The position numbers and the translations under genes were made by a program. Below, in pieces: positions 29,967 through 39,175 of a DNA stretch of 64,000 nucleotides (position 1 is its first letter; each line of letters begins with the position of its first letter). Source of the stretch: Bacillus sp. 103mf (GTDB taxonomy: Bacteria > Bacillota > Bacilli > Bacillales > Bacillaceae_G); assembly GCF_900116295.1 (NCBI RefSeq), contig NZ_FPAF01000001.1, positions 1,175,213-1,239,212 on the forward strand. The letters are read 5' to 3'. A model generated the notes under the pieces. The model ran no database searches. It was given only the letters and a program-made list of their open reading frames with translations, and was not told the DNA's origin.

Positions 29967-30569
29967 ATGGCTCGTTATACAGGTCCATCTTGGAAACTTT
30001 CTCGTCGTCTTGGAATCTCTCTAAGCGGCACAGGTAAAGAATTAGAAAAACGCCCTTACGCACCAGGTCCACACGGTCCTAACCAACGTAAGAAACTTTC
30101 TGAATACGGTTTACAATTACAAGAAAAACAAAAACTTCGTCACATGTACGGCATGACTGAGCGTCAATTCCGTCGCACATTTGACCAAGCTGGTAAAATG
30201 ATGGGTAAACACGGTGAAAACTTCATGATCCTTCTTGAAGCTCGCCTTGACAACCTAGTTTACCGCATGGGCTTAGCTCGCACTCGTCGCGCTGCTCGTC
30301 AATTAGTAAACCACGGTCACATCATGGTAGATGGCGCTCGCGTAGATATCCCATCTTACCGCGTTAAACCAGGCCAAACTATCAGCGTTCGCGAAAAATC
30401 TCTAAACCTAGCTGTAGTTAAAGAAGCTATCGAAGTTAACAACTTCGTACCTGAGTACTTAACTTTCGATGCTGACAAATTAGAAGCTACTTTCACTCGC
30501 TTACCAGAGCGCGCTGAGTTAGCTGCTGAAATCAACGAAGCGTTAATCGTAGAGTTCTACTCTCGTTAA
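29967..30569 (+). CDS. rpsD: 30S ribosomal protein S4
   Basis: 200 residues, the standard Bacillus length. Primary 16S rRNA-binding protein that nucleates 30S assembly. The N-terminal [20 protein letters not shown], the S4 RNA-binding domain around [20 protein letters not shown] and [20 protein letters not shown] are diagnostic. AAAGGAGG is upstream. The cysteine knuckle of the zinc-containing S4 form is absent (C- form). Codon use is visibly optimised compared with neighbours. Confidence 0.99.
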
Positions 30570-30572
30570 TGA

Positions 30573-30606
30573 CGAAAAGCCAATCCTTTTGGATTGGCTT
30601 TTTTCG
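30573..30606 (+). terminator. Terminator after rpsD
   Basis: AAGCCAATCC/GGATTGGCTT stem followed by TTTTTT. Confidence 0.9.
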
Positions 30607-30621
30607 TTGTATAAAAACATT

Positions 30622-30642
30622 TATCTCGAAGTTTCACTTTAT
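30622..30642 (-). repeat. Family B repeat remnant B8 (5' end only)
   Basis: On the minus strand ATAAAGTGAAACTTCGAGAT; the TAA is the stop codon of the 50-aa gene. The remaining element is missing, and the rpsD terminator follows from the other side. Confidence 0.5.
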
Positions 30643-30791
30643 TTCAGTTTTATATTCATCGTTTTATTCTCTGCTTGTTTCTCCACATAAACATGTTGTT
30701 CACTACATTTTTTTTGCAATTGACTTGTTTCGTTTTCTGCTAGCTGTCCTGCATTTAGCAGTGAAAAAATAATTAATGCTTCTAGTGACAT
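30639..30791 (-). CDS. Small protein of unknown function (50 aa)
   Basis: Not recognised. GGGAG lies eight bases before the ATG at 30791. Residues 2-12 are hydrophobic (SLEALIIFSLL) and the rest is polar, with one cysteine and several Lys/Glu. It could be a small membrane-tethered peptide. Its stop codon is the first part of a family B repeat remnant. It sits just outside the four-gene cassette, on the same strand and 230 bases downstream, but need not belong to it. Confidence 0.5.
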   Translation of the reverse strand: MSLEALIIFSLLNAGQLAENETSQLQKKCSEQHVYVEKQAENKTMNIKLK

Positions 30792-31017
30792 ATAGATAAC
30801 TCCCTCTTTTCTATCACTTTTGATATTTACAGCATACATGTTTGTTATGAACTTGGAGTGAACATACGGAAAAGTTTTGAACAAAAATTCAACATGACAT
30901 AATAATGAAATTTGTTATTTCACCTTTCTCATTTGTTTCAGAAAAAGTGATAAGCAAAAAAAATTGTATCATGCTCATTCATACTTATATGATATTTCAA
31001 TTTAAATGTTTTCTAAT

Positions 31018-32367
31018 TTAAACACACTCTTCACTCGCTGCCACATCTTTCATTTCTACACTAGACCAATCTAGCTTCAAATACCTATATCCAAATGCAG
31101 CAAATAATCCTAAAATATAAATGTAAAACCCAATCCATGGACCATAAACCCCTAATTTCCACACAAAGGTGAAAATAAAAGATATTGGAATAAACATGAA
31201 CCATCCTAATAATAAGGCTACTTTCATTGTATAAGAATTATCACCAATACCTCTTAAACCACCAGCTAAAATTAATTGAAGTCCATCAAAAATAACGAAC
31301 AATGAAGCAAAACGTAAAACTTCAGCAGTTAGTGAAAGTACTACTTCTTCTGTAGTAAATAATTTTGCTACATATTCCGCACCAAAAAAATAAATGATTG
31401 TAAATGGAACAATGAAGTAAAGTCCTACTTTCATTACATCAAATCCAATTTCTTTAGCAATGAGAGGTCTCCTTTTTCCAAGTTGTTGTCCAAGTAAAAT
31501 TGTCGCTGTAATTCCAAATCCAATCCCTGGCAAATATGCGAGTGATATTACATTTAAAACAATTTCTGTAGCAGCTAATTCTATATCACCAACTCTAGAA
31601 ATGAATATGGTAAAAACAAGCATTGCACCACTCATTCCTAGTTCTTCTAAGCCGATCTTTAATCCCTCTATATTAACTAGTTTAAACTCTCCTTCTTTAA
31701 AACTTATAAGCTTTCTTGTTGGAAATACATTATTTTCCCTAAAATAGCAAACTAGCAAACCTGTAACTTGAACAATTTCTGAAACAATAAACGCCCAACC
31801 TGCACCTAATACACCTAATTTAGGAAAGAATAAAAATCCATTTACCAACAATAGTGCTAATATTACATTTAAAGTATTACCTAAAATTGAAAAATACATT
31901 GGAGTCTTTGTATTTCCTATCCCTCTAAAAAATCCATTTAATACTACCCGAAACATGTTCAGTGTAAATGAAATAATTCTTAATCCTAAATAACCTACTC
32001 CAATCAATGCAATACTTTTTGAAACCCCCATAATTCCAAAAAACCATGAAGGCGCAAATAATGCGAATAATAAGAAAAAAGGAACTAGAGCTATAACAGA
32101 ATATATTCCTGTATACGTGTATGTAACACATTTTTTTAAATCTCTAGCTCCATAAGATTGTGATACTAAAAAGTTTACAGCGAAGCCAATGCCACTAAAT
32201 AGAGCAAACAAATTTAATATAACTACGTTTGTAATACCCACTGCAGCAATTGCTTCATAACCTAAGTGTCCAATAATGATAAGATTTACCACTCCCATTA
32301 AGTTAGTGGAACTCATCTCAATAATAGTTGGAATAGTCATTTTCAAAATTTTCTTATATCTATTCAT
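31018..32367 (-). CDS. MATE-family efflux transporter
   Basis: 449 residues with about twelve transmembrane helices in two halves, each opening with a MATE-like motif (GFAVNFLVSQSYGARDLKKC; GFGITATILLGQQLGKR). MATE proteins export small cationic or amphiphilic compounds using proton or sodium gradients. The start follows the previous stop by two bases, so it is the last gene of a four-gene operon with an adenylating enzyme and two ligases. The likely job is to export their product, or to protect the producer; this is inferred from context. Confidence 0.9.
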   Translation of the reverse strand: MNRYKKILKMTIPTIIEMSSTNLMGVVNLIIIGHLGYEAIAAVGITNVVILNLFALFSGIGFAVNFLVSQSYGARDLKKCVTYTYTGIYSVIALVPFFLLFALFAPSWFFGIMGVSKSIALIGVGYLGLRIISFTLNMFRVVLNGFFRGIGNTKTPMYFSILGNTLNVILALLLVNGFLFFPKLGVLGAGWAFIVSEIVQVTGLLVCYFRENNVFPTRKLISFKEGEFKLVNIEGLKIGLEELGMSGAMLVFTIFISRVGDIELAATEIVLNVISLAYLPGIGFGITATILLGQQLGKRRPLIAKEIGFDVMKVGLYFIVPFTIIYFFGAEYVAKLFTTEEVVLSLTAEVLRFASLFVIFDGLQLILAGGLRGIGDNSYTMKVALLLGWFMFIPISFIFTFVWKLGVYGPWIGFYIYILGLFAAFGYRYLKLDWSSVEMKDVAASEECV

Positions 32368-32369
32368 GT

Positions 32370-33731
32370 TTAACTCCTATAAAAAAGACATGTTACAGCT
32401 GCACCATTTTTAAGATTCACTACATCACTTTGCTCACAAGGTAATCCCCTTAACATCGCTCCTGCGAATTCTCCATTAATAATGTATAGCCCCCAACACA
32501 TGATGGCTTTCTTTAAGTCAATAGTTTCCTCTATTACAAAAGGAATTTCTTCTTCAAGTGGATATACCCTTTCCTGGACAATATACACAATATCAGAATT
32601 TAATAAATTTAAAACCGCTTTTTCCCAATCATTCTCATTGTACTTCCAGCCTAAAAATACCTCATTTCCTCCATAACCAATCGTTGCCTTAATCACAAGT
32701 TTATCTTTATTTTTTAAAATATACTCCATTCCCTCAACCTCTAGATTATCTTCTGACGTTACCATGTCTTTTAAAAATCGAGTCCAAGGAATGCATCTTT
32801 TTACTAAATCTAATTCTTCATTTGTAAAGAAATGACTATAATAAGGATCTGAAAGGAACACAAGATTTCCTTTATTTCCATAAAGTTCGGTATGAAATCC
32901 TGTTAACAACTCCAGATTACCAGCTTGGGAAGCTTGGACAATCGCTTGTACTTCTTCTGGATTATATAGCGCATCATCACATAAAAATGCACGATACAAA
33001 ATATCAATTTTCCGGCCATTTACCGTAAGCATATTATCCTTAAGTTCCGCTTCTTTTTGAGAGCATATAATCGCATTATATCCAGCTTCTTTTAGTCTTA
33101 ATTTAATATAATTTAAGGTACCATAGTAACTATCAAGATATTCATCCCAATCCATAACAGCTATAGTTATGTCACTATAGTTTCTCCCAATCTTTATAGC
33201 TAGTTCATTTATATTTTCTATTAATATATCCATAGGATCAACATAATCCCATTTTTCAGAATCCTTTAGCATTTTATAAAACTCAAAAGAACGCATGCTT
33301 TTATTTAAATATCCTATATCTAGTCCTCCAACACTGCTATCTACATTAAATTCCAAAAATTTATATCCAGATTTTGTAAAATATATATCACTGCGAGCTA
33401 TCAAATTCTTATTTTGATACGTTGACATCATTAATTGATATTGTTTTTCTGAAAAACCTAAAGTTGTACACATTTTTAGGATATCCCCTGAAAATATACG
33501 TTCTGGTAAAGATACAATAATATCTAATAACGCCTTGGTATCTCTACTAAGGATGTCCAATTTTTCTCCGCTTAACAATCCAGGCTTTGGAATTATCATA
33601 GTTTCTTTATCAGAATAATACTGAAGAACTCTCTCTTTAACCAATTTATTTTGTAATTGTTTAAATGAGCTGATTGCTAATTGGGAATTCTCTCGTACAC
33701 TCACATTAAATTCATCAACCTGTGTCTTCAT
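32370..33731 (-). CDS. Circularly permuted ATP-grasp-like ligase (copy 1)
   Basis: 453 residues. YKFLEFNVDSSVGGLDIGYL (near 125-144) matches the E-x-N-x(4)-GG element of circularly permuted ATP-grasp/glutathionylspermidine-synthase-like proteins. LVIKATIGYGGNEVFLGWK (near 343) has the Lys and glycine-rich loop that hold ATP, and YIVQERVYPL with FVIEETIDL supply acidic metal-binding residues. Enzymes of this fold join a carboxylate to an amine through an acyl phosphate. Overlaps the upstream ligase gene by four bases. Substrates unknown. Clearly diverged from its neighbour, so the two probably add different units. Confidence 0.7.
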   Translation of the reverse strand: MKTQVDEFNVSVRENSQLAISSFKQLQNKLVKERVLQYYSDKETMIIPKPGLLSGEKLDILSRDTKALLDIIVSLPERIFSGDILKMCTTLGFSEKQYQLMMSTYQNKNLIARSDIYFTKSGYKFLEFNVDSSVGGLDIGYLNKSMRSFEFYKMLKDSEKWDYVDPMDILIENINELAIKIGRNYSDITIAVMDWDEYLDSYYGTLNYIKLRLKEAGYNAIICSQKEAELKDNMLTVNGRKIDILYRAFLCDDALYNPEEVQAIVQASQAGNLELLTGFHTELYGNKGNLVFLSDPYYSHFFTNEELDLVKRCIPWTRFLKDMVTSEDNLEVEGMEYILKNKDKLVIKATIGYGGNEVFLGWKYNENDWEKAVLNLLNSDIVYIVQERVYPLEEEIPFVIEETIDLKKAIMCWGLYIINGEFAGAMLRGLPCEQSDVVNLKNGAAVTCLFYRS

Positions 33732-35107
33732 ACACTCATTACCTTTTCTTTCACATCTTTTAATACAATTACAGGTTGCTCATATCCACCTTGTCCAAGA
33801 TTAATAACAGCTTTATCCGAAATACGTGATACGACTCCAGCATATTTTCCACCAAACATAAATATATCAATTCCGAATTTCTTGCTTTTTTTCACAATAT
33901 TTTCACCTTCGGATTCTAATATACTTACACTTGGAATTTCGTTATATTCCTGAATAATCCAATTTGTATTTTTATTATCATTTACGATTTTAGCCCATAC
34001 CTCTTCATCTGTATCTTTACCTAAAAATACATTTTCCCCTCGTGTAGAATTATCAACTTTTAAAACAAAGCGATCTTTATTATCAATAACATATTCAATT
34101 AAATTTATTATTTCCCCTTTAAAAGAAGTTATAGTTTCTTCTAACTTTCTTGTCCATAAAATATGTTTATTAACCATCTCGATTTGTTCGTAAGATAAAT
34201 ATTTTTCTTGAAATCTCGGATCCGTAAGTAAAGCTAATGTCATTTTACTCTCTCCGATAAACATAGAAGGATATGAGTTAACATTACAAACTAGCCCTTT
34301 CTCACATGCTTCAATTACATCCTCCATATCTTTATTACCTAGTTCTAATTGATCAACTTTATTATAAATAATATCGATCGGACATTCGTTATACATAAGT
34401 TGCTGCCTTTGTGAATCTAATTTTAGATCTCGCAAATCACAAATAACAATGTTATGTCCCATTTCACGACCATATTTTTTTATGTGCTCCAATTCGTATG
34501 AATAGTTACCAGCATAATTTACAAGAGCAATTTGAGGCCTATCAATATTACCTCCCATTTCTTTATAAGCATTTAATAATTCACTAATAAATCCATTAGG
34601 TGTATCACACAAAAATTGTTCCTGTTCATAAGAGCTTGTAATTTCTTTAATAAATGATAGATTAGCCCATTGCTCTTTCAATTTACCTAATACAACAACC
34701 CCTCCTGGGCAGCATGCATTTGGTTCAACGACTTTAAATCCTTCTCCTCCATTCCATATACAATCAAATCTTGAGATTCTAATTTTGCGCTTATACCTTG
34801 GATTAATGTTAATTAATCTTGTATATTTATTGTAGTATGAAAAAAACTCCTTAATCTCTTCATCTTTCTCATATGCTTCTAACACTATTTCTAATGCATC
34901 AGAAAGTGTTTCAGAAGCTCTCTGAAAATACTTGTTTTCTTCTTCTGTAATAGCTAAAGGCTGAACAGAAAAAGGGAGTGCCTTTTCTTTAAATATTAAT
35001 CCTTCTTGTTGAATGATTTGATCTACTTCTTTTAAAGTCTCTTTAAAGCCTCTTTCATTTTTTTCTGCTAAATTATGAAATTCTTCTCCAGTTTGTTTAA
35101 ATAACAT
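33728..35107 (-). CDS. Circularly permuted ATP-grasp-like ligase (copy 2)
   Basis: 459 residues, same overall plan as the next gene. RISRFDCIWNGGEGFKVVEP continues into NACCPGGVVVLG (near 113-142), the E-x-N-x(4)-GG element. FVLKVDNSTRGENVFLGKD (near 347) is the ATP-holding Lys and glycine loop; WIIQEYNEIPSV follows. Likely an ATP-dependent amide ligase. The start codon lies 15 bases after the adenylating-enzyme stop, and the stop overlaps copy 1 (ATGA). Substrate unknown. No carrier protein or thioesterase is present nearby. Confidence 0.7.
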   Translation of the reverse strand: MLFKQTGEEFHNLAEKNERGFKETLKEVDQIIQQEGLIFKEKALPFSVQPLAITEEENKYFQRASETLSDALEIVLEAYEKDEEIKEFFSYYNKYTRLININPRYKRKIRISRFDCIWNGGEGFKVVEPNACCPGGVVVLGKLKEQWANLSFIKEITSSYEQEQFLCDTPNGFISELLNAYKEMGGNIDRPQIALVNYAGNYSYELEHIKKYGREMGHNIVICDLRDLKLDSQRQQLMYNECPIDIIYNKVDQLELGNKDMEDVIEACEKGLVCNVNSYPSMFIGESKMTLALLTDPRFQEKYLSYEQIEMVNKHILWTRKLEETITSFKGEIINLIEYVIDNKDRFVLKVDNSTRGENVFLGKDTDEEVWAKIVNDNKNTNWIIQEYNEIPSVSILESEGENIVKKSKKFGIDIFMFGGKYAGVVSRISDKAVINLGQGGYEQPVIVLKDVKEKVMSV

Positions 35108-35122
35108 ATAAAATCCCTCCGT

Positions 35123-36454
35123 TTATTTTCTTTGATCTATAACTCGAACGATTTTTCCTGAACTTTCAGAAACCTTAAGATTCTCTCTGCTTACTAAACT
35201 GATTACTAAGGGGGCGATTACCTGTAATTGAATCATTTGTTTAAGCTTCGGTGTATAAGTTAAAATCCGCTCCCTAATTCTGTTTATTAAATTTGCTTCA
35301 ATTTCTTTATCCATAGCTTTTCCTGATACTTCAAAAAAAACATGAATCATATCTCTATTTGCCTGTTTTTTTACTACTAATTGAAATTCTCCAGTCAACT
35401 CGTCTAAATGACTGCATGCCTGAGCGAAAATTTGCGGAAAGATTTGTTCACCACCTAATTTAATGATTTCTCCTTTTCTTCCGATTAATTTAATCCTTTG
35501 ATTCGTTCTCCCACACGGGCATAAAGAATCTATTTTTAATACCAAATCATTTGTTTGGTATCGAATAACTGGCATCAACTTTCTTTTTAAATTCGTAATG
35601 ACAAGTTCACCAACTTCTCCATCTTGTACAGGTTGGCCTTGTTCATTCAAGATCTCAACATACTGCAATTGATCATGTATATGGTACGTACCTGCTTCAC
35701 AGTAATCACATTGAAAACCAATAGTCCCAACATCCATACTTTGAAACACTGATTTGAAATCTTTCACTCCTAAAGCAGATTCTAAATAATTCTGGGTAGA
35801 AGAATACATTTTTTCTCCGCCATAAACAATTCGATTTATTGAAAGTTGACTTTTGTTTTTTTCTATATATTGTGCTAAGGGTACGACATCCGAAGGCATG
35901 ACTAACAGGGTTGTAACATTGAACATTTTTATATACCTAGATAACCTTTCAAGATCCGAACTCATCCCTATAGGAACAATTGTACATCCAGTTCTTTCAA
36001 GTCCTAGATAAACAGTAAACTCAGATGTTAAAAATCCTGGTACTCCAAATGTGGCAACTGTATCACTTTTATTAATTCCGGCCATTGCATAACCTTTACC
36101 ATGAAAAAATATATTTTCTTTTAGCTCATCTGCTGTTAAATAAATCAGTTTAGGTTCTCCTGTTGTTCCCCCACTTGTAAATACGTAAGAATTGTGAGGA
36201 GAACTGGTCAGCATATGCTTTGGCGGAATTTCTTTCATAATATCCCGAGAACTAATCATAGGAATTTCTTCATACTCTCTAAGATTGCTTACATTCACAT
36301 TTACATTTTGATATAACTCCTGGTAAAATCGCGATTGTTCGTTAGCAAAAGATACAATTTTATTTAGTTGTCCTAATTGCTTTATTTGTTTATCTTTCCT
36401 CGGGATAAAATCTGTCGTTTTCTCTAAATTTGTAAATATTGAAGTGCTAAACAA
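35123..36454 (-). CDS. PaaK-like adenylate-forming enzyme
   Basis: 443 residues, of the phenylacetate-CoA ligase/coenzyme F390 synthetase group in the ANL superfamily. Motifs: VFTSGGTTGEPKLIYLT (P-loop, near 88-104), a Cys cluster CDYCEAGTYHIHD and LCPCGRT, MPVIRYQTNDL (A7), IGRKGEIIKLGGEQIFPQ (A8) and a C-terminal SSGKIVRV lysine. It should activate an aromatic or other carboxylic acid as acyl-AMP and perhaps pass it to CoA or to an amine. The TTG at 36454 is chosen because AAAGGAGG lies eight bases upstream. First gene of the four-gene operon. Confidence 0.8.
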   Translation of the reverse strand: MFSTSIFTNLEKTTDFIPRKDKQIKQLGQLNKIVSFANEQSRFYQELYQNVNVNVSNLREYEEIPMISSRDIMKEIPPKHMLTSSPHNSYVFTSGGTTGEPKLIYLTADELKENIFFHGKGYAMAGINKSDTVATFGVPGFLTSEFTVYLGLERTGCTIVPIGMSSDLERLSRYIKMFNVTTLLVMPSDVVPLAQYIEKNKSQLSINRIVYGGEKMYSSTQNYLESALGVKDFKSVFQSMDVGTIGFQCDYCEAGTYHIHDQLQYVEILNEQGQPVQDGEVGELVITNLKRKLMPVIRYQTNDLVLKIDSLCPCGRTNQRIKLIGRKGEIIKLGGEQIFPQIFAQACSHLDELTGEFQLVVKKQANRDMIHVFFEVSGKAMDKEIEANLINRIRERILTYTPKLKQMIQLQVIAPLVISLVSRENLKVSESSGKIVRVIDQRK

Positions 36455-36475
36455 TAAATCTCCTCCTTTGTTCAT

Positions 36476-36833
36476 GATAAAAGAAATGATTAGCTTCTTT
36501 CACAATCACCTTCTCTTTACTGGCATCATGTAATCACAGAAAAACATCAATATTAATCCGGAAATATTTTTTACCTTTTTTTCATAAATATTACAGTTAG
36601 AAGTTTATACGCATTAAATTTTATTTTAAATATTAAAAACAAGACAAAAATCGACACTAATATTATTAAAATGAATTTTTTTTTACTTTTTTTATTTTTT
36701 ATTCCTAAATTTGTAATTGACACCAGATAAATAAAAGGGGGTTTTTTAGAAATTTTGAATACGTTATAAGTGACAGAAAAATAAGAATTGTTTTGATAAA
36801 TTAAAATGCATCCTTTTTAAGTACCTAAAAACA
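36476..36833. other. Very AT-rich upstream region of the four-gene cassette
   Basis: No gene is visible. On the minus strand TTGTCT, 18 bases, TAAAAT (about 36618-36647) could be a promoter. The A/T content here is far above that of neighbouring intergenic regions, with long A and T tracts, often seen at the edges of acquired DNA. Confidence 0.4.
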
Positions 36834-36865
36834 AAAAAACAAGACAATTTTGTCTTGTTTTTCCA
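36834..36865. terminator. Terminator separating mscS from the cassette
   Basis: AAAACAAGACAA and TTGTCTTGTTTT pair, with A-runs on the left and T on the right; on the minus strand it ends the mscS transcript before the cassette. Confidence 0.75.
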
Positions 36866-36964
36866 CTATATTTTTTTACAAAATATTTCTTCCGTATCTT
36901 CTAGTATAAGAAAGTCCTCATACACATTTTGTAAGACTCCGGCATCACCGAAGTCCTTCTTCAA
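36866..36964 (-). CDS. Candidate small acidic protein downstream of mscS (32 aa)
   Basis: TTG to TAG, ten bases after the mscS stop, with AAGGG seven bases before the TTG. The peptide, beginning KKDFGDAGVLQNVYEDF and continuing LILEDTEEIFCKKI, is acidic and protein-like, and ends right at the terminator. It is shorter than usual gene-calling limits. Function unknown; co-transcription with mscS is the only clue. Confidence 0.4.
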   Translation of the reverse strand: MKKDFGDAGVLQNVYEDFLILEDTEEIFCKKI

Positions 36965-36974
36965 TCATATTCCC

Positions 36975-37541
36975 TTACGCTATTTCTTTACGTTTTTCAC
37001 CTAAAGAGTAGTTCGCAACTTTTGTAATTGAACTGTTCGCAACGAAATAAATCTCGCCGGTTTCTGCAACGAGCTGCGTCGTACGAAGCCCTACTTCTTC
37101 GATGATACCGTCAATATCATTAATTTTCACTTTATCGCCAACTGAAAATTGATCTTCGAAAATAATAAAGAATCCTGTTACAACGTCTTTTACTAAGTTT
37201 TGTGCTCCAAACCCAATTGCTAAACCGGCAACACTCACCCCAGCAAGAAGCGCTTTAATATCGATTCCTACTGTTTCTAAAACCGTCATAATGACCATGA
37301 AATACACAACATAATGAACAATATTTTGACAAAGCTTCGTTAATGTCGCTTCACGTCTTTCATTTGTACGCACAGGCGCTTTGCTGCTCATCTTAAATAT
37401 TTGTTCAATTCCTACAGAAGCTACGCGAATAATCACTTTTGCCGCAATAAAAATAACAATAATTTTCAGGATGGTTTCCCCAAAGCTAATTAATTTGTCC
37501 GGATTTAAAATATACTCATCTACAATTTTCTGAATATCCAA
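36975..37541 (-). CDS. Small-conductance mechanosensitive channel family protein (MscS-like, short)
   Basis: 188 residues: a first transmembrane helix (about 22-42), a second (about 70-92), then the pore helix AGVSVAGLAIGFGAQNLVKDV with its Gly/Ala pattern, and the start of the beta domain (FSVGDKVKINDIDGIIEEVG). It lacks the full C-terminal cage domain of E. coli MscS. It would open under membrane tension on osmotic downshock. TTG start with GGAG eight bases upstream. It begins right after the tyrS terminator palindrome. Confidence 0.88.
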   Translation of the reverse strand: MDIQKIVDEYILNPDKLISFGETILKIIVIFIAAKVIIRVASVGIEQIFKMSSKAPVRTNERREATLTKLCQNIVHYVVYFMVIMTVLETVGIDIKALLAGVSVAGLAIGFGAQNLVKDVVTGFFIIFEDQFSVGDKVKINDIDGIIEEVGLRTTQLVAETGEIYFVANSSITKVANYSLGEKRKEIA

Positions 37542-37560
37542 AATGTTAACTCCTCTCCTT

Positions 37561-37601
37561 TAAAATGCAAAAAGCGTAAGAATTCTTACGCTTTTTGCAT
37601 T

Positions 37602-37604
<3 letters not shown>
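37561..37604. terminator. 44-bp perfect palindrome: tyrS terminator
   Basis: AAAATGCAAAAAGCGTAAG and its exact complement meet at GAATTC, 22 bp per arm without loop or mismatch. The tyrS stop codon lies in the first arm as read on the minus strand, and the mscS ribosome site begins right after the last arm. Confidence 0.75.

Positions 37605-39175
<1,571 letters not shown>

What the first reader, a model, noticed from the sequence alone, without database searches (positions are those of the whole stretch)
31018..36475. AT-rich four-gene cassette: PaaK-like adenylase, two different CP-ATP-grasp ligases and a MATE exporter
Seen: four genes on the minus strand in the order adenylate-forming enzyme, ligase 2, ligase 1, MATE, with gaps of 15 or fewer bases and a 4-base overlap, so one operon. 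The two ligases share the E-x-N-x(4)-GG and Lys/glycine-loop elements but differ widely. Known: PaaK-like enzymes make acyl-AMP/CoA; CP-ATP-grasp enzymes form amide bonds. Inferred: an aromatic (or other) acid is activated and joined to two amines or amino acids, and the product is exported. There is no NRPS, carrier protein or regulator. Three 60-base lines inside counted 21, 16 and 13 G+C, well below the surrounding genes, and the cassette sits between the conserved rpsD and mscS-tyrS genes. I know of no described pathway with this set.
Basis: partly seen in the sequence, partly recalled or inferred. Interest (0 to 1): 0.85.

Follow-up and report, generated by a model that had tools for sequence, protein, structure and literature searches.

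The report
Four-gene cassette for exported small amides
A Bacillus-like genome carries four neighbouring genes that look like a small assembly line (one acid-activating enzyme, two distantly related ligases and an exporter) for making and secreting an unknown peptide-like compound; each type of enzyme is known, but this combination was not seen elsewhere in the limited material searched.

Summary
In detail: four minus-strand genes, gaps of 15 and 2 bases and a 4-base overlap, 31.6% G+C, between rpsD and mscS-tyrS. Gene 1 is a PaaK-like adenylate-forming enzyme (A); genes 2 and 3 are glutathionylspermidine-synthase-type ATP-grasp ligases (L2, L1); gene 4 is a MATE exporter. L1 and L2 fall in different clades and a sister placement is rejected. 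Both keep the R-x-D/E-x-N residues that matter in Cp1B, the fungal E-64 ligase, which a family profile also finds by sequence. A and L2 have a distant linked counterpart in Bradyrhizobium canariense, whose adenylase is A's reciprocal best BLAST match among 21 different PaaK-type sequences compared. Janthinobacterium fluminis has two adjacent ligases followed by an MFS exporter. The whole set was found in none of 48 other ligase loci. Best reading: an NRPS-independent amide/peptide pathway with export, in the chemical logic of dapdiamide and E-64 but a member of neither. Product, substrates and order are unknown. No Bacillus genome could be searched, so conservation in Bacillaceae is untested; structure prediction never ran. 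New variant of a known kind.

The parts
35123..36475 (-). A: PaaK-like adenylate-forming enzyme (first gene; likely true start TTG at 36454)
   Evidence: Pfam AMP-binding + AMP-binding_C_2; P-loop TSGGTTGEP, C-terminal SGKIVRVID and a CxxC...CxC set by eye; start site
33728..35107 (-). L2: GSP_synth-type (circularly permuted) ATP-grasp ligase
   Evidence: Pfam GSP_synth over cut-off; R113, D115, E128, N130, K288, K350, Q386 invariant in 40 of 40 aligned rows (38 relatives plus L1 and L2); family-profile PDB hits 3n6x and Cp1B
32370..33731 (-). L1: second GSP_synth-type ATP-grasp ligase, of a different clade (four Streptomyces and one unnamed actinobacterial relative)
   Evidence: Pfam GSP_synth just over cut-off; clade support 97/97 and 98/96; sister relation with L2 rejected, p-AU 4.95e-51
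31018..32367 (-). M: MATE-family exporter (last gene)
   Evidence: Pfam MatE 170.6 bits; NCBIfam TIGR00797 238.1 bits, cut-off 147.4
36476..36824 (-). AT-rich leader, presumably with the cassette's promoter
   Evidence: about 25% G+C; promoter-like matches are no more frequent than in shuffles over 30500-37700, so no promoter is assigned
36825..36870 (-). terminator-like hairpin with T run between mscS and the cassette, suggesting separate transcription
   Evidence: RNA fold -14.6 kcal/mol, z -4.61, 1 of 200 shuffles as good; the consensus scan did not list it

Best explanation
A self-contained NRPS-independent cassette that makes and exports a small amide or acylated short peptide. A adenylates a carboxylic acid with ATP and either passes it straight to an amine (amide bond synthetase) or makes a thioester first (inferred). 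L2 and L1 each phosphorylate a carboxylate with ATP and join the acyl-phosphate to an amine or amino acid, giving two further amide bonds (reaction type from family and conserved catalytic residues; substrates and order unknown). The MATE protein exports the product (inferred from family and operon). The natural role is probably secretion of a bioactive or signalling compound (inferred, weakest step).
For: Tight gene spacing and a hairpin between mscS and the cassette. Family assignments over curated cut-offs. L1/L2 family profiles find Cp1B, the E-64 ligase, at E 4e-7 and 1.6e-7, and YgiC, named a putative acid-amine ligase, at 7e-4 and 6e-4. The residues whose alanine changes abolish or attenuate Cp1B (R139, D141, E163, N165; PMC12568646 section 8) have the R-x-D...E-x-N form that is invariant in 40 of 40 aligned rows; I matched the motifs by eye, since the profile alignment to Cp1B does not cover that stretch, while the YgiC alignment does. 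Distant linkage: in Bradyrhizobium canariense (L019) an L2-clade ligase is followed by an AMP-binding (PaaK-like) gene that is A's reciprocal best BLAST match among 21 different PaaK-type sequences: A to it 186 bits, next 156; it to A 186, next 91.7. In Janthinobacterium (L027) two adjacent ligases are followed by an MFS gene. In Nocardia (L026) an AMP-binding enzyme, an aminotransferase and an L2-clade ligase lie near each other. GCS2, MATE and ligase genes are consecutive in Selenomonas (L009).
Against: The full set was seen in 0 of 48 other ligase loci, some of them short, so the unit is not shown to be conserved. A PaaK-like gene next to the ligase is 1 of 48, paired ligases 1 of 48. A's grouping with the Bradyrhizobium enzyme has support 94/89 and is unresolved when L037, L038 and a duplicate row are left out; by tree path A's nearest row there is a Bacteroides PaaK. 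GSP_synth scores are weak: L1 barely over cut-off, the Bradyrhizobium ligase under it (22.7 of 29.3 bits), and neither Janthinobacterium ligase matches any Pfam family at the limits used; these are known as relatives only through L1/L2. No acid-making gene is in the cassette. No structure model was obtained. Expression and activity are untested.
Confidence: 0.6

Rival explanations
1. A is a true acyl-CoA (or acyl-thioester) ligase for import or salvage of an acid, and L1/L2 conjugate it to glutathione-like or polyamine partners for detoxification, with MATE as drug-type efflux: a xenobiotic-handling cassette.
For: The models and structures nearest to A are named CoA ligases; the ligase profiles also find YgiC and, weakly, glutathionylspermidine synthetase; MATE proteins often export drugs (recalled).
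Against: No acyltransferase in the cassette; A is under the cut-off of every CoA-ligase model shown (25 of 31 families shown); relatives of L1/L2 lie near biosynthesis-type genes (ectB, other ATP-grasp ligases, exporters, NRPS).
Confidence: 0.16
2. The ligases modify a cell component (cell-wall precursor or a protein) rather than make a free small molecule, with the MATE protein acting as a flippase for a precursor.
For: ATP-grasp amidoligases that modify proteins or wall precursors exist (recalled); a CapA-type gene stands within about 4-8 kb of some relatives (L002, L004, L019).
Against: No lipid-linked sugar, wall or peptide substrate gene in the cassette; the MATE protein is over the cut-off of the general MATE efflux model.
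Confidence: 0.1
3. A decaying or chance neighbourhood: AT-rich accessory genes that do not act together.
For: AT-rich; the set was not seen elsewhere.
Against: All four frames intact, catalytic residues kept, tight spacing with an overlap; partial linkages in other phyla.
Confidence: 0.08

Closest known systems
E-64 pathway of fungi (Cp1B ATP-grasp + Cp1D adenylate-forming amide bond synthetase; PMC12568646)
   Same: One adenylate-forming enzyme plus a glutathione-synthetase-type ATP-grasp ligase without NRPS; Cp1B is found by the L1/L2 family profiles and has R-x-D and E-x-N residues of the same form
   Different: E-64 clusters encode four proteins: oxygenase, one ATP-grasp, PLP decarboxylase, adenylase; here two ligases and a MATE exporter, no oxygenase or decarboxylase. 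Whether A resembles Cp1D was not tested
Dapdiamide pathway (DdaG adenylase, DdaF ATP-grasp), as described in PMC12568646
   Same: Adenylase plus ATP-grasp make two amide bonds of a pseudotripeptide
   Different: A scores 40 bits against the DdaG cut-off of 700; the dapdiamide route also uses the NRPS enzyme DdaD and the oxygenase DdaC (reference title seen)
Glutathionylspermidine synthetase / YgiC / 3n6x family (PF03738)
   Same: L1 and L2 pass the Pfam cut-off; family-profile hits to 3n6x, YgiC and weakly 2io7
   Different: No amidase domain match; biosynthesis-like neighbourhoods of relatives; substrates unknown
PaaK phenylacetate-CoA ligases
   Same: A has the same domains and hits 4r1l at 6.7e-43
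   Different: Far under the PaaK equivalog cut-off; GG-type P-loop (SGGTTG) instead of SSGTTG; outside the nine-row PaaK group in both trees
Bradyrhizobium canariense ligase-adenylase pair (L019) and Janthinobacterium fluminis ligase pair (L027)
   Same: L019: L2-clade ligase plus A-like adenylase; L027: two adjacent ligases with an MFS exporter next
   Different: L019 has one ligase and no exporter match in the stretch; L027 has no adenylase match; its second ligase cannot be assigned to the L1 clade

Membership tests
GSP_synth-type ATP-grasp ligases (PF03738) | Score over curated cut-off | tested here: met
   L1 29.7, L2 33.4, cut-off 29.3 bits; narrow for L1
GSP_synth-type ATP-grasp ligases (PF03738) | Catalytic R-x-D ... 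E-x-N and ATP-site lysines kept | tested here: met
   R113, D115, E128, N130, K288, K350 (L2 numbering) invariant in 40 of 40 rows; role of the first four by analogy with Cp1B; that the lysines bind ATP is inferred
GSP_synth-type ATP-grasp ligases (PF03738) | Circularly permuted ATP-grasp fold | not tested
   structure prediction was never accepted
Bifunctional glutathionylspermidine synthetase/amidase | Amidase domain in the same chain | tested here: not met
   no amidase match at E up to 1; 453 and 459 aa against 619 in 2io7
Phenylacetate-CoA ligase PaaK (TIGR02155) | Equivalog cut-off 646.3 bits | tested here: not met
   144.4 bits
ANL/PaaK-like adenylate-forming enzymes | AMP-binding and AMP-binding_C_2 domains, P-loop, C-terminal lysine region | tested here: met
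   (motifs by eye)
Dapdiamide pathway | DdaG equivalog (NF041596, cut-off 700 bits) | tested here: not met
   40 bits
E-64 (cp1-type) clusters | Fe/2-oxoglutarate oxygenase and PLP decarboxylase beside the two ligases | tested here: not met
   absent from the cassette; neighbours are rpsD and mscS-tyrS
E-64 (cp1-type) clusters | Homologous ATP-grasp ligase | tested here: met
   9cjn Cp1B at 4e-7 and 1.6e-7 by family profile, mainly its C-terminal part
E-64 (cp1-type) clusters | Adenylase related to Cp1D | not tested
   no Cp1D sequence was at hand
MATE exporters | MatE / TIGR00797 over cut-off | tested here: met
   170.6 against 24.9 and 238.1 against 147.4 bits
Co-conserved four-gene system in Bacillaceae | Same set in related genomes | not testable with these tools
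   no genome held for the window and no Bacillus genome handle reached; near-identical L2 not found in genome contigs by exact peptides; no Bacillus among the 7 and 10 plasmid records matching L2 and L1

The most novel reading that the evidence does not exclude
A minimal bacterial pathway in which one adenylase and two GSP_synth-type ATP-grasp ligases of separate ancestry build a tripartite acid-amino acid-amine (E-64-like) pseudopeptide, for example a protease inhibitor or signal, without NRPS, carrier protein or tailoring enzyme, and its two-ligase and adenylase-ligase halves recur in distant phyla as interchangeable parts of a wider unrecognised class.
Probability: 0.25. Interest if true: 0.72.

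Novelty: new variant of a known kind. Interest (0 to 1): 0.5.

Why it matters
NRPS-independent amide-forming enzymes are sought both as routes to new bioactive compounds and as biocatalysts. A cassette of three ligating enzymes and an exporter is small enough to reconstitute in full, so the rule of which enzyme makes which bond would be directly testable, and profiles of L1 and L2 would probably flag further unannotated clusters in rhizobia, Photorhabdus, actinomycetes and others.

Tried and rejected
Foreign origin from composition: AT-rich, but codon preference is not unusual; repeats in 30500-37000 showed no pair of direct repeats flanking the cassette (one imperfect 22-base inverted pair has an arm outside at 30949 and one inside A at 36351); left open. 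Anti-phage defence: no PADLOC match for any of the four at E up to 0.01. Phage origin: only weak PHROG matches of L1 and L2 to 'glutathionylspermidine synthase'. Recent tandem duplication of the ligases: rejected. L1-type identity of the second Janthinobacterium ligase: on the L1 side with 80/90 in the full tree, not joined to L1 in the thinned tree; pairing it with L1 alone gave p-AU 0.016, with L2 alone 0.069; so unassigned. Aromatic substrate: no support.

Ten paper searches gave no pathway with this set; the library holds open-licence papers only. Papers: PMC12568646 abstract, section 8 and passages; PMC10979984, PMC13338154 and PMC11641026 passages only (the last two not relevant); of the 5 papers listed only PMC11641026 was opened; PMC3268129 and PMC4304603 are not held, so earlier surveys of ATP-grasp neighbourhoods went unread. 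Species of the window: several family models fit Bacillus; that PRK06767 and PRK03501 (over cut-off) and EzrA model PRK04778.1-5 (slightly under) point to the B. cereus group is my recollection, so the species is not identified.

Neighbourhood counts: 48 loci besides the window; many are close rhizobial or Photorhabdus relatives and not independent, and some stretches are short (L013, L014, L071). L016 (same record as L002), L010 and L011 were left out as duplicates. The ligase profile was built from many of these same sequences. Transporters were sought with only six query proteins, five of them from these same loci: 12 of 48 stretches had a match, five of which are the query itself. Genome searches, centre genomes included: L1 in 47 of 296 actinobacterial genomes at E<=0.001, mostly weak; L2 in 2 of 296 of the Bradyrhizobium family, 2 of 245 of the Janthinobacterium family at E<=1e-8, 11 of 348 of the Nocardia order at E<=1e-10 (two of the rows, the Nocardia genome's among them, report a stop inside the frame). 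A in 6 of 7 genomes picked through loci. The Bradyrhizobium adenylase gave 0 of 297 in the Mesorhizobium family at E<=1e-20 (no positive control in that call) and no plasmid record with 80% coverage. Regions L083 and L088 were fetched; L083 was not analysed further.

Full report
What is there. Four complete genes lie on the minus strand at 36475-31018: A (PaaK-like adenylate-forming enzyme), L2 and L1 (two GSP_synth-type ligases) and M (MATE exporter), with a 15-base gap, a 4-base overlap and a 2-base gap. Pfam and NCBIfam confirm each class; L1 and L2 pass the GSP_synth cut-off by 0.4 and 4.1 bits. A's ATG is probably not the real start: AAAGGAGGAG lies inside that frame, 5 bases before an in-frame TTG at 36454. 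A hairpin with a T run at 36870-36825, z -4.61, lies between mscS and the cassette, so separate transcription is likely; no promoter could be assigned, since promoter-like matches were no more frequent than in shuffles.

Composition. The cassette has 31.6% G+C, its genes 30.1-33.3%, against a mean of 38.3% (s.d. 2.4, minimum 33.2%) for 35 other genes of the window picked by hand; codon preference is not unusual. The cassette is an AT-rich island, but foreign origin is not shown.

The ligases. L1 and L2 are 27% identical over about 350 residues. Single-sequence searches of the PDB find nothing at E up to 10, but profiles of the family find 3n6x, Cp1B (the E-64 ATP-grasp ligase), a glutathione-synthetase-like protein, YgiC and, weakly, glutathionylspermidine synthetase. 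In 40 of 40 aligned rows (38 relatives, L1 and L2), R113, D115, E128, N130, K288, K350, G363, W371, Q386 and R428 (L2 numbering) are invariant. In Cp1B, alanine changes of R139, D141, E163 and N165 abolish or significantly attenuate activity (PMC12568646 section 8). The correspondence was made by eye and is supported by the YgiC profile alignment over that stretch; the Cp1B alignment does not cover it. In trees L1 groups with four Streptomyces proteins and one of an unnamed actinobacterium (97/97 and 98/96), L2 with rhizobial, Photorhabdus, Pseudomonas, Pantoea, Amycolatopsis, Nocardia and Janthinobacterium proteins (100/98 and 99/98). Holding L1 and L2 together is rejected (p-AU 4.95e-51). 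They were therefore not duplicated recently.

The adenylase. A keeps a P-loop (TSGGTTGEP), a C-terminal SGKIVRVID region and a CxxC...CxC set. Nine PaaKs with loops such as SSGTTG form one group (100/100) to which A does not belong. In the thinned tree A, the Bradyrhizobium enzyme and GG-loop enzymes of Streptomyces, Photorhabdus and Pseudomonas form the other side (100/100); in Photorhabdus and Pseudomonas one of these is fused to a LuxC-type reductase. A with Bradyrhizobium alone has 94/89 and is unresolved in the thinned tree, where A's nearest row by path is a Bacteroides PaaK. One other sequence with a GG-type loop (L037) is a very long branch, weakly placed on the other side (79/83) and left out of the thinned tree.

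Neighbourhoods. Relatives of L1 and L2 stand near ectB-type aminotransferases (next to the ligase on the Pantoea plasmid, about 7 kb away in Mesorhizobium, fused to it in Pseudomonas and Photorhabdus), other ATP-grasp ligases, GCS2 ligases, exporters and an NRPS gene. Of 48 loci besides the window, one (L019, Bradyrhizobium) has a PaaK-like gene next to the ligase, one (L027, Janthinobacterium) has two adjacent ligases followed by an MFS gene (49.8 bits, cut-off 33.4), and none has the four-gene set. Three of 48 hold a strong PaaK-profile match somewhere in the stretch (L019, L064, L073); seven hold another AMP-binding match (L007, L008, L023, L026, L087, L105, L106). The Bradyrhizobium ligase is under the GSP_synth cut-off (22.7 of 29.3 bits) and the two Janthinobacterium ligases match no Pfam family at the limits used; they are recognised only by similarity to L1/L2. 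The Bradyrhizobium adenylase has A as best match by a wide margin, 186 against 91.7 bits, and is A's best match in the same set, 186 against 156 bits. Against plasmids, A's matches among the 40 of 313 records listed are at most 29.7% identical.

How it most likely works. Shown: gene order, families, conserved residues, separate clades of the ligases, and part-linkages in other phyla. Inferred: A activates a carboxylic acid as acyl-AMP and transfers it to an amine or thiol; L2 and L1 each form one amide bond through an acyl-phosphate; the MATE protein exports the product. The closest described logic is the E-64 route (ATP-grasp joins the diacid to an amino acid, an adenylate-forming amide bond synthetase adds the amine) and dapdiamide (DdaG and DdaF), both as told in PMC12568646. 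It is a member of neither: the DdaG model is missed by far and the E-64 partner genes are absent.

Limits. No whole genome is held for the window, no Bacillus genome could be reached, and neither genome-contig scan returned a Bacillota relative (none, 17 loci of other phyla). The first scan uses exact peptides and would miss moderately different relatives. Structure prediction never started. The species was not identified; a place in or near the B. cereus group is my recollection of what the family models cover.

Noticed in passing
L022 6546-9281 (Pseudomonas fluorescens), L023 5847-9323 (Photorhabdus); L004 7605-10332 unfused (Pantoea plasmid): Class-III aminotransferase (ectB-like) fused to, or next to, an L2-clade ligase; on the Pantoea plasmid followed by annotated ThiF, TauD, GNAT, CapA, ATP-grasp, PurD-type and MFS genes. 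I could not name this cluster.
   Followed up: partly
L009 4741-9083 (Selenomonas pSRC2); L065 8142-10591 (unnamed actinobacterium): GCS2-type glutamate-cysteine ligase near a GSP_synth-type ligase, in Selenomonas with a MATE gene between: another compact ligase-exporter set.
   Followed up: partly
L025 7254-9251 (Amycolatopsis thermalba): One stop-to-stop frame matches TfuA over cut-off and, under cut-off, a circularly permuted ATP-grasp; fusion or upstream overlap was not separated.
   Followed up: no
L081 6019-11777 (Photorhabdus thracensis); L040 1249-3771 (Pseudomonas fluorescens): LuxE-like gene, a LuxC reductase fused to a PaaK-like adenylase, a second such adenylase and a GNAT gene in a row; the same LuxC-adenylase fusion in Pseudomonas (AMP-binding under cut-off).
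   Followed up: partly
L002 486-1328 (Mesorhizobium amorphae plasmid): A protein over the Pfam cut-off for WelO5 (carrier-independent halogenase family), beside ectB and about 6.5 kb from the ligase.
   Followed up: no
window 38924-39150, minus strand: T-box leader upstream of tyrS (151 bits), as expected for an aminoacyl-tRNA synthetase gene.
   Followed up: no
window 36635-36649 and 36848-36862: Perfect 15-base inverted repeat; one arm belongs to the mscS-side hairpin, the other lies alone in the AT-rich leader.
   Followed up: no
window 30639-30884, minus strand: Small ORF between the MATE gene and rpsD, without a Pfam match at E up to 1; may be a real short gene or chance.
   Followed up: no
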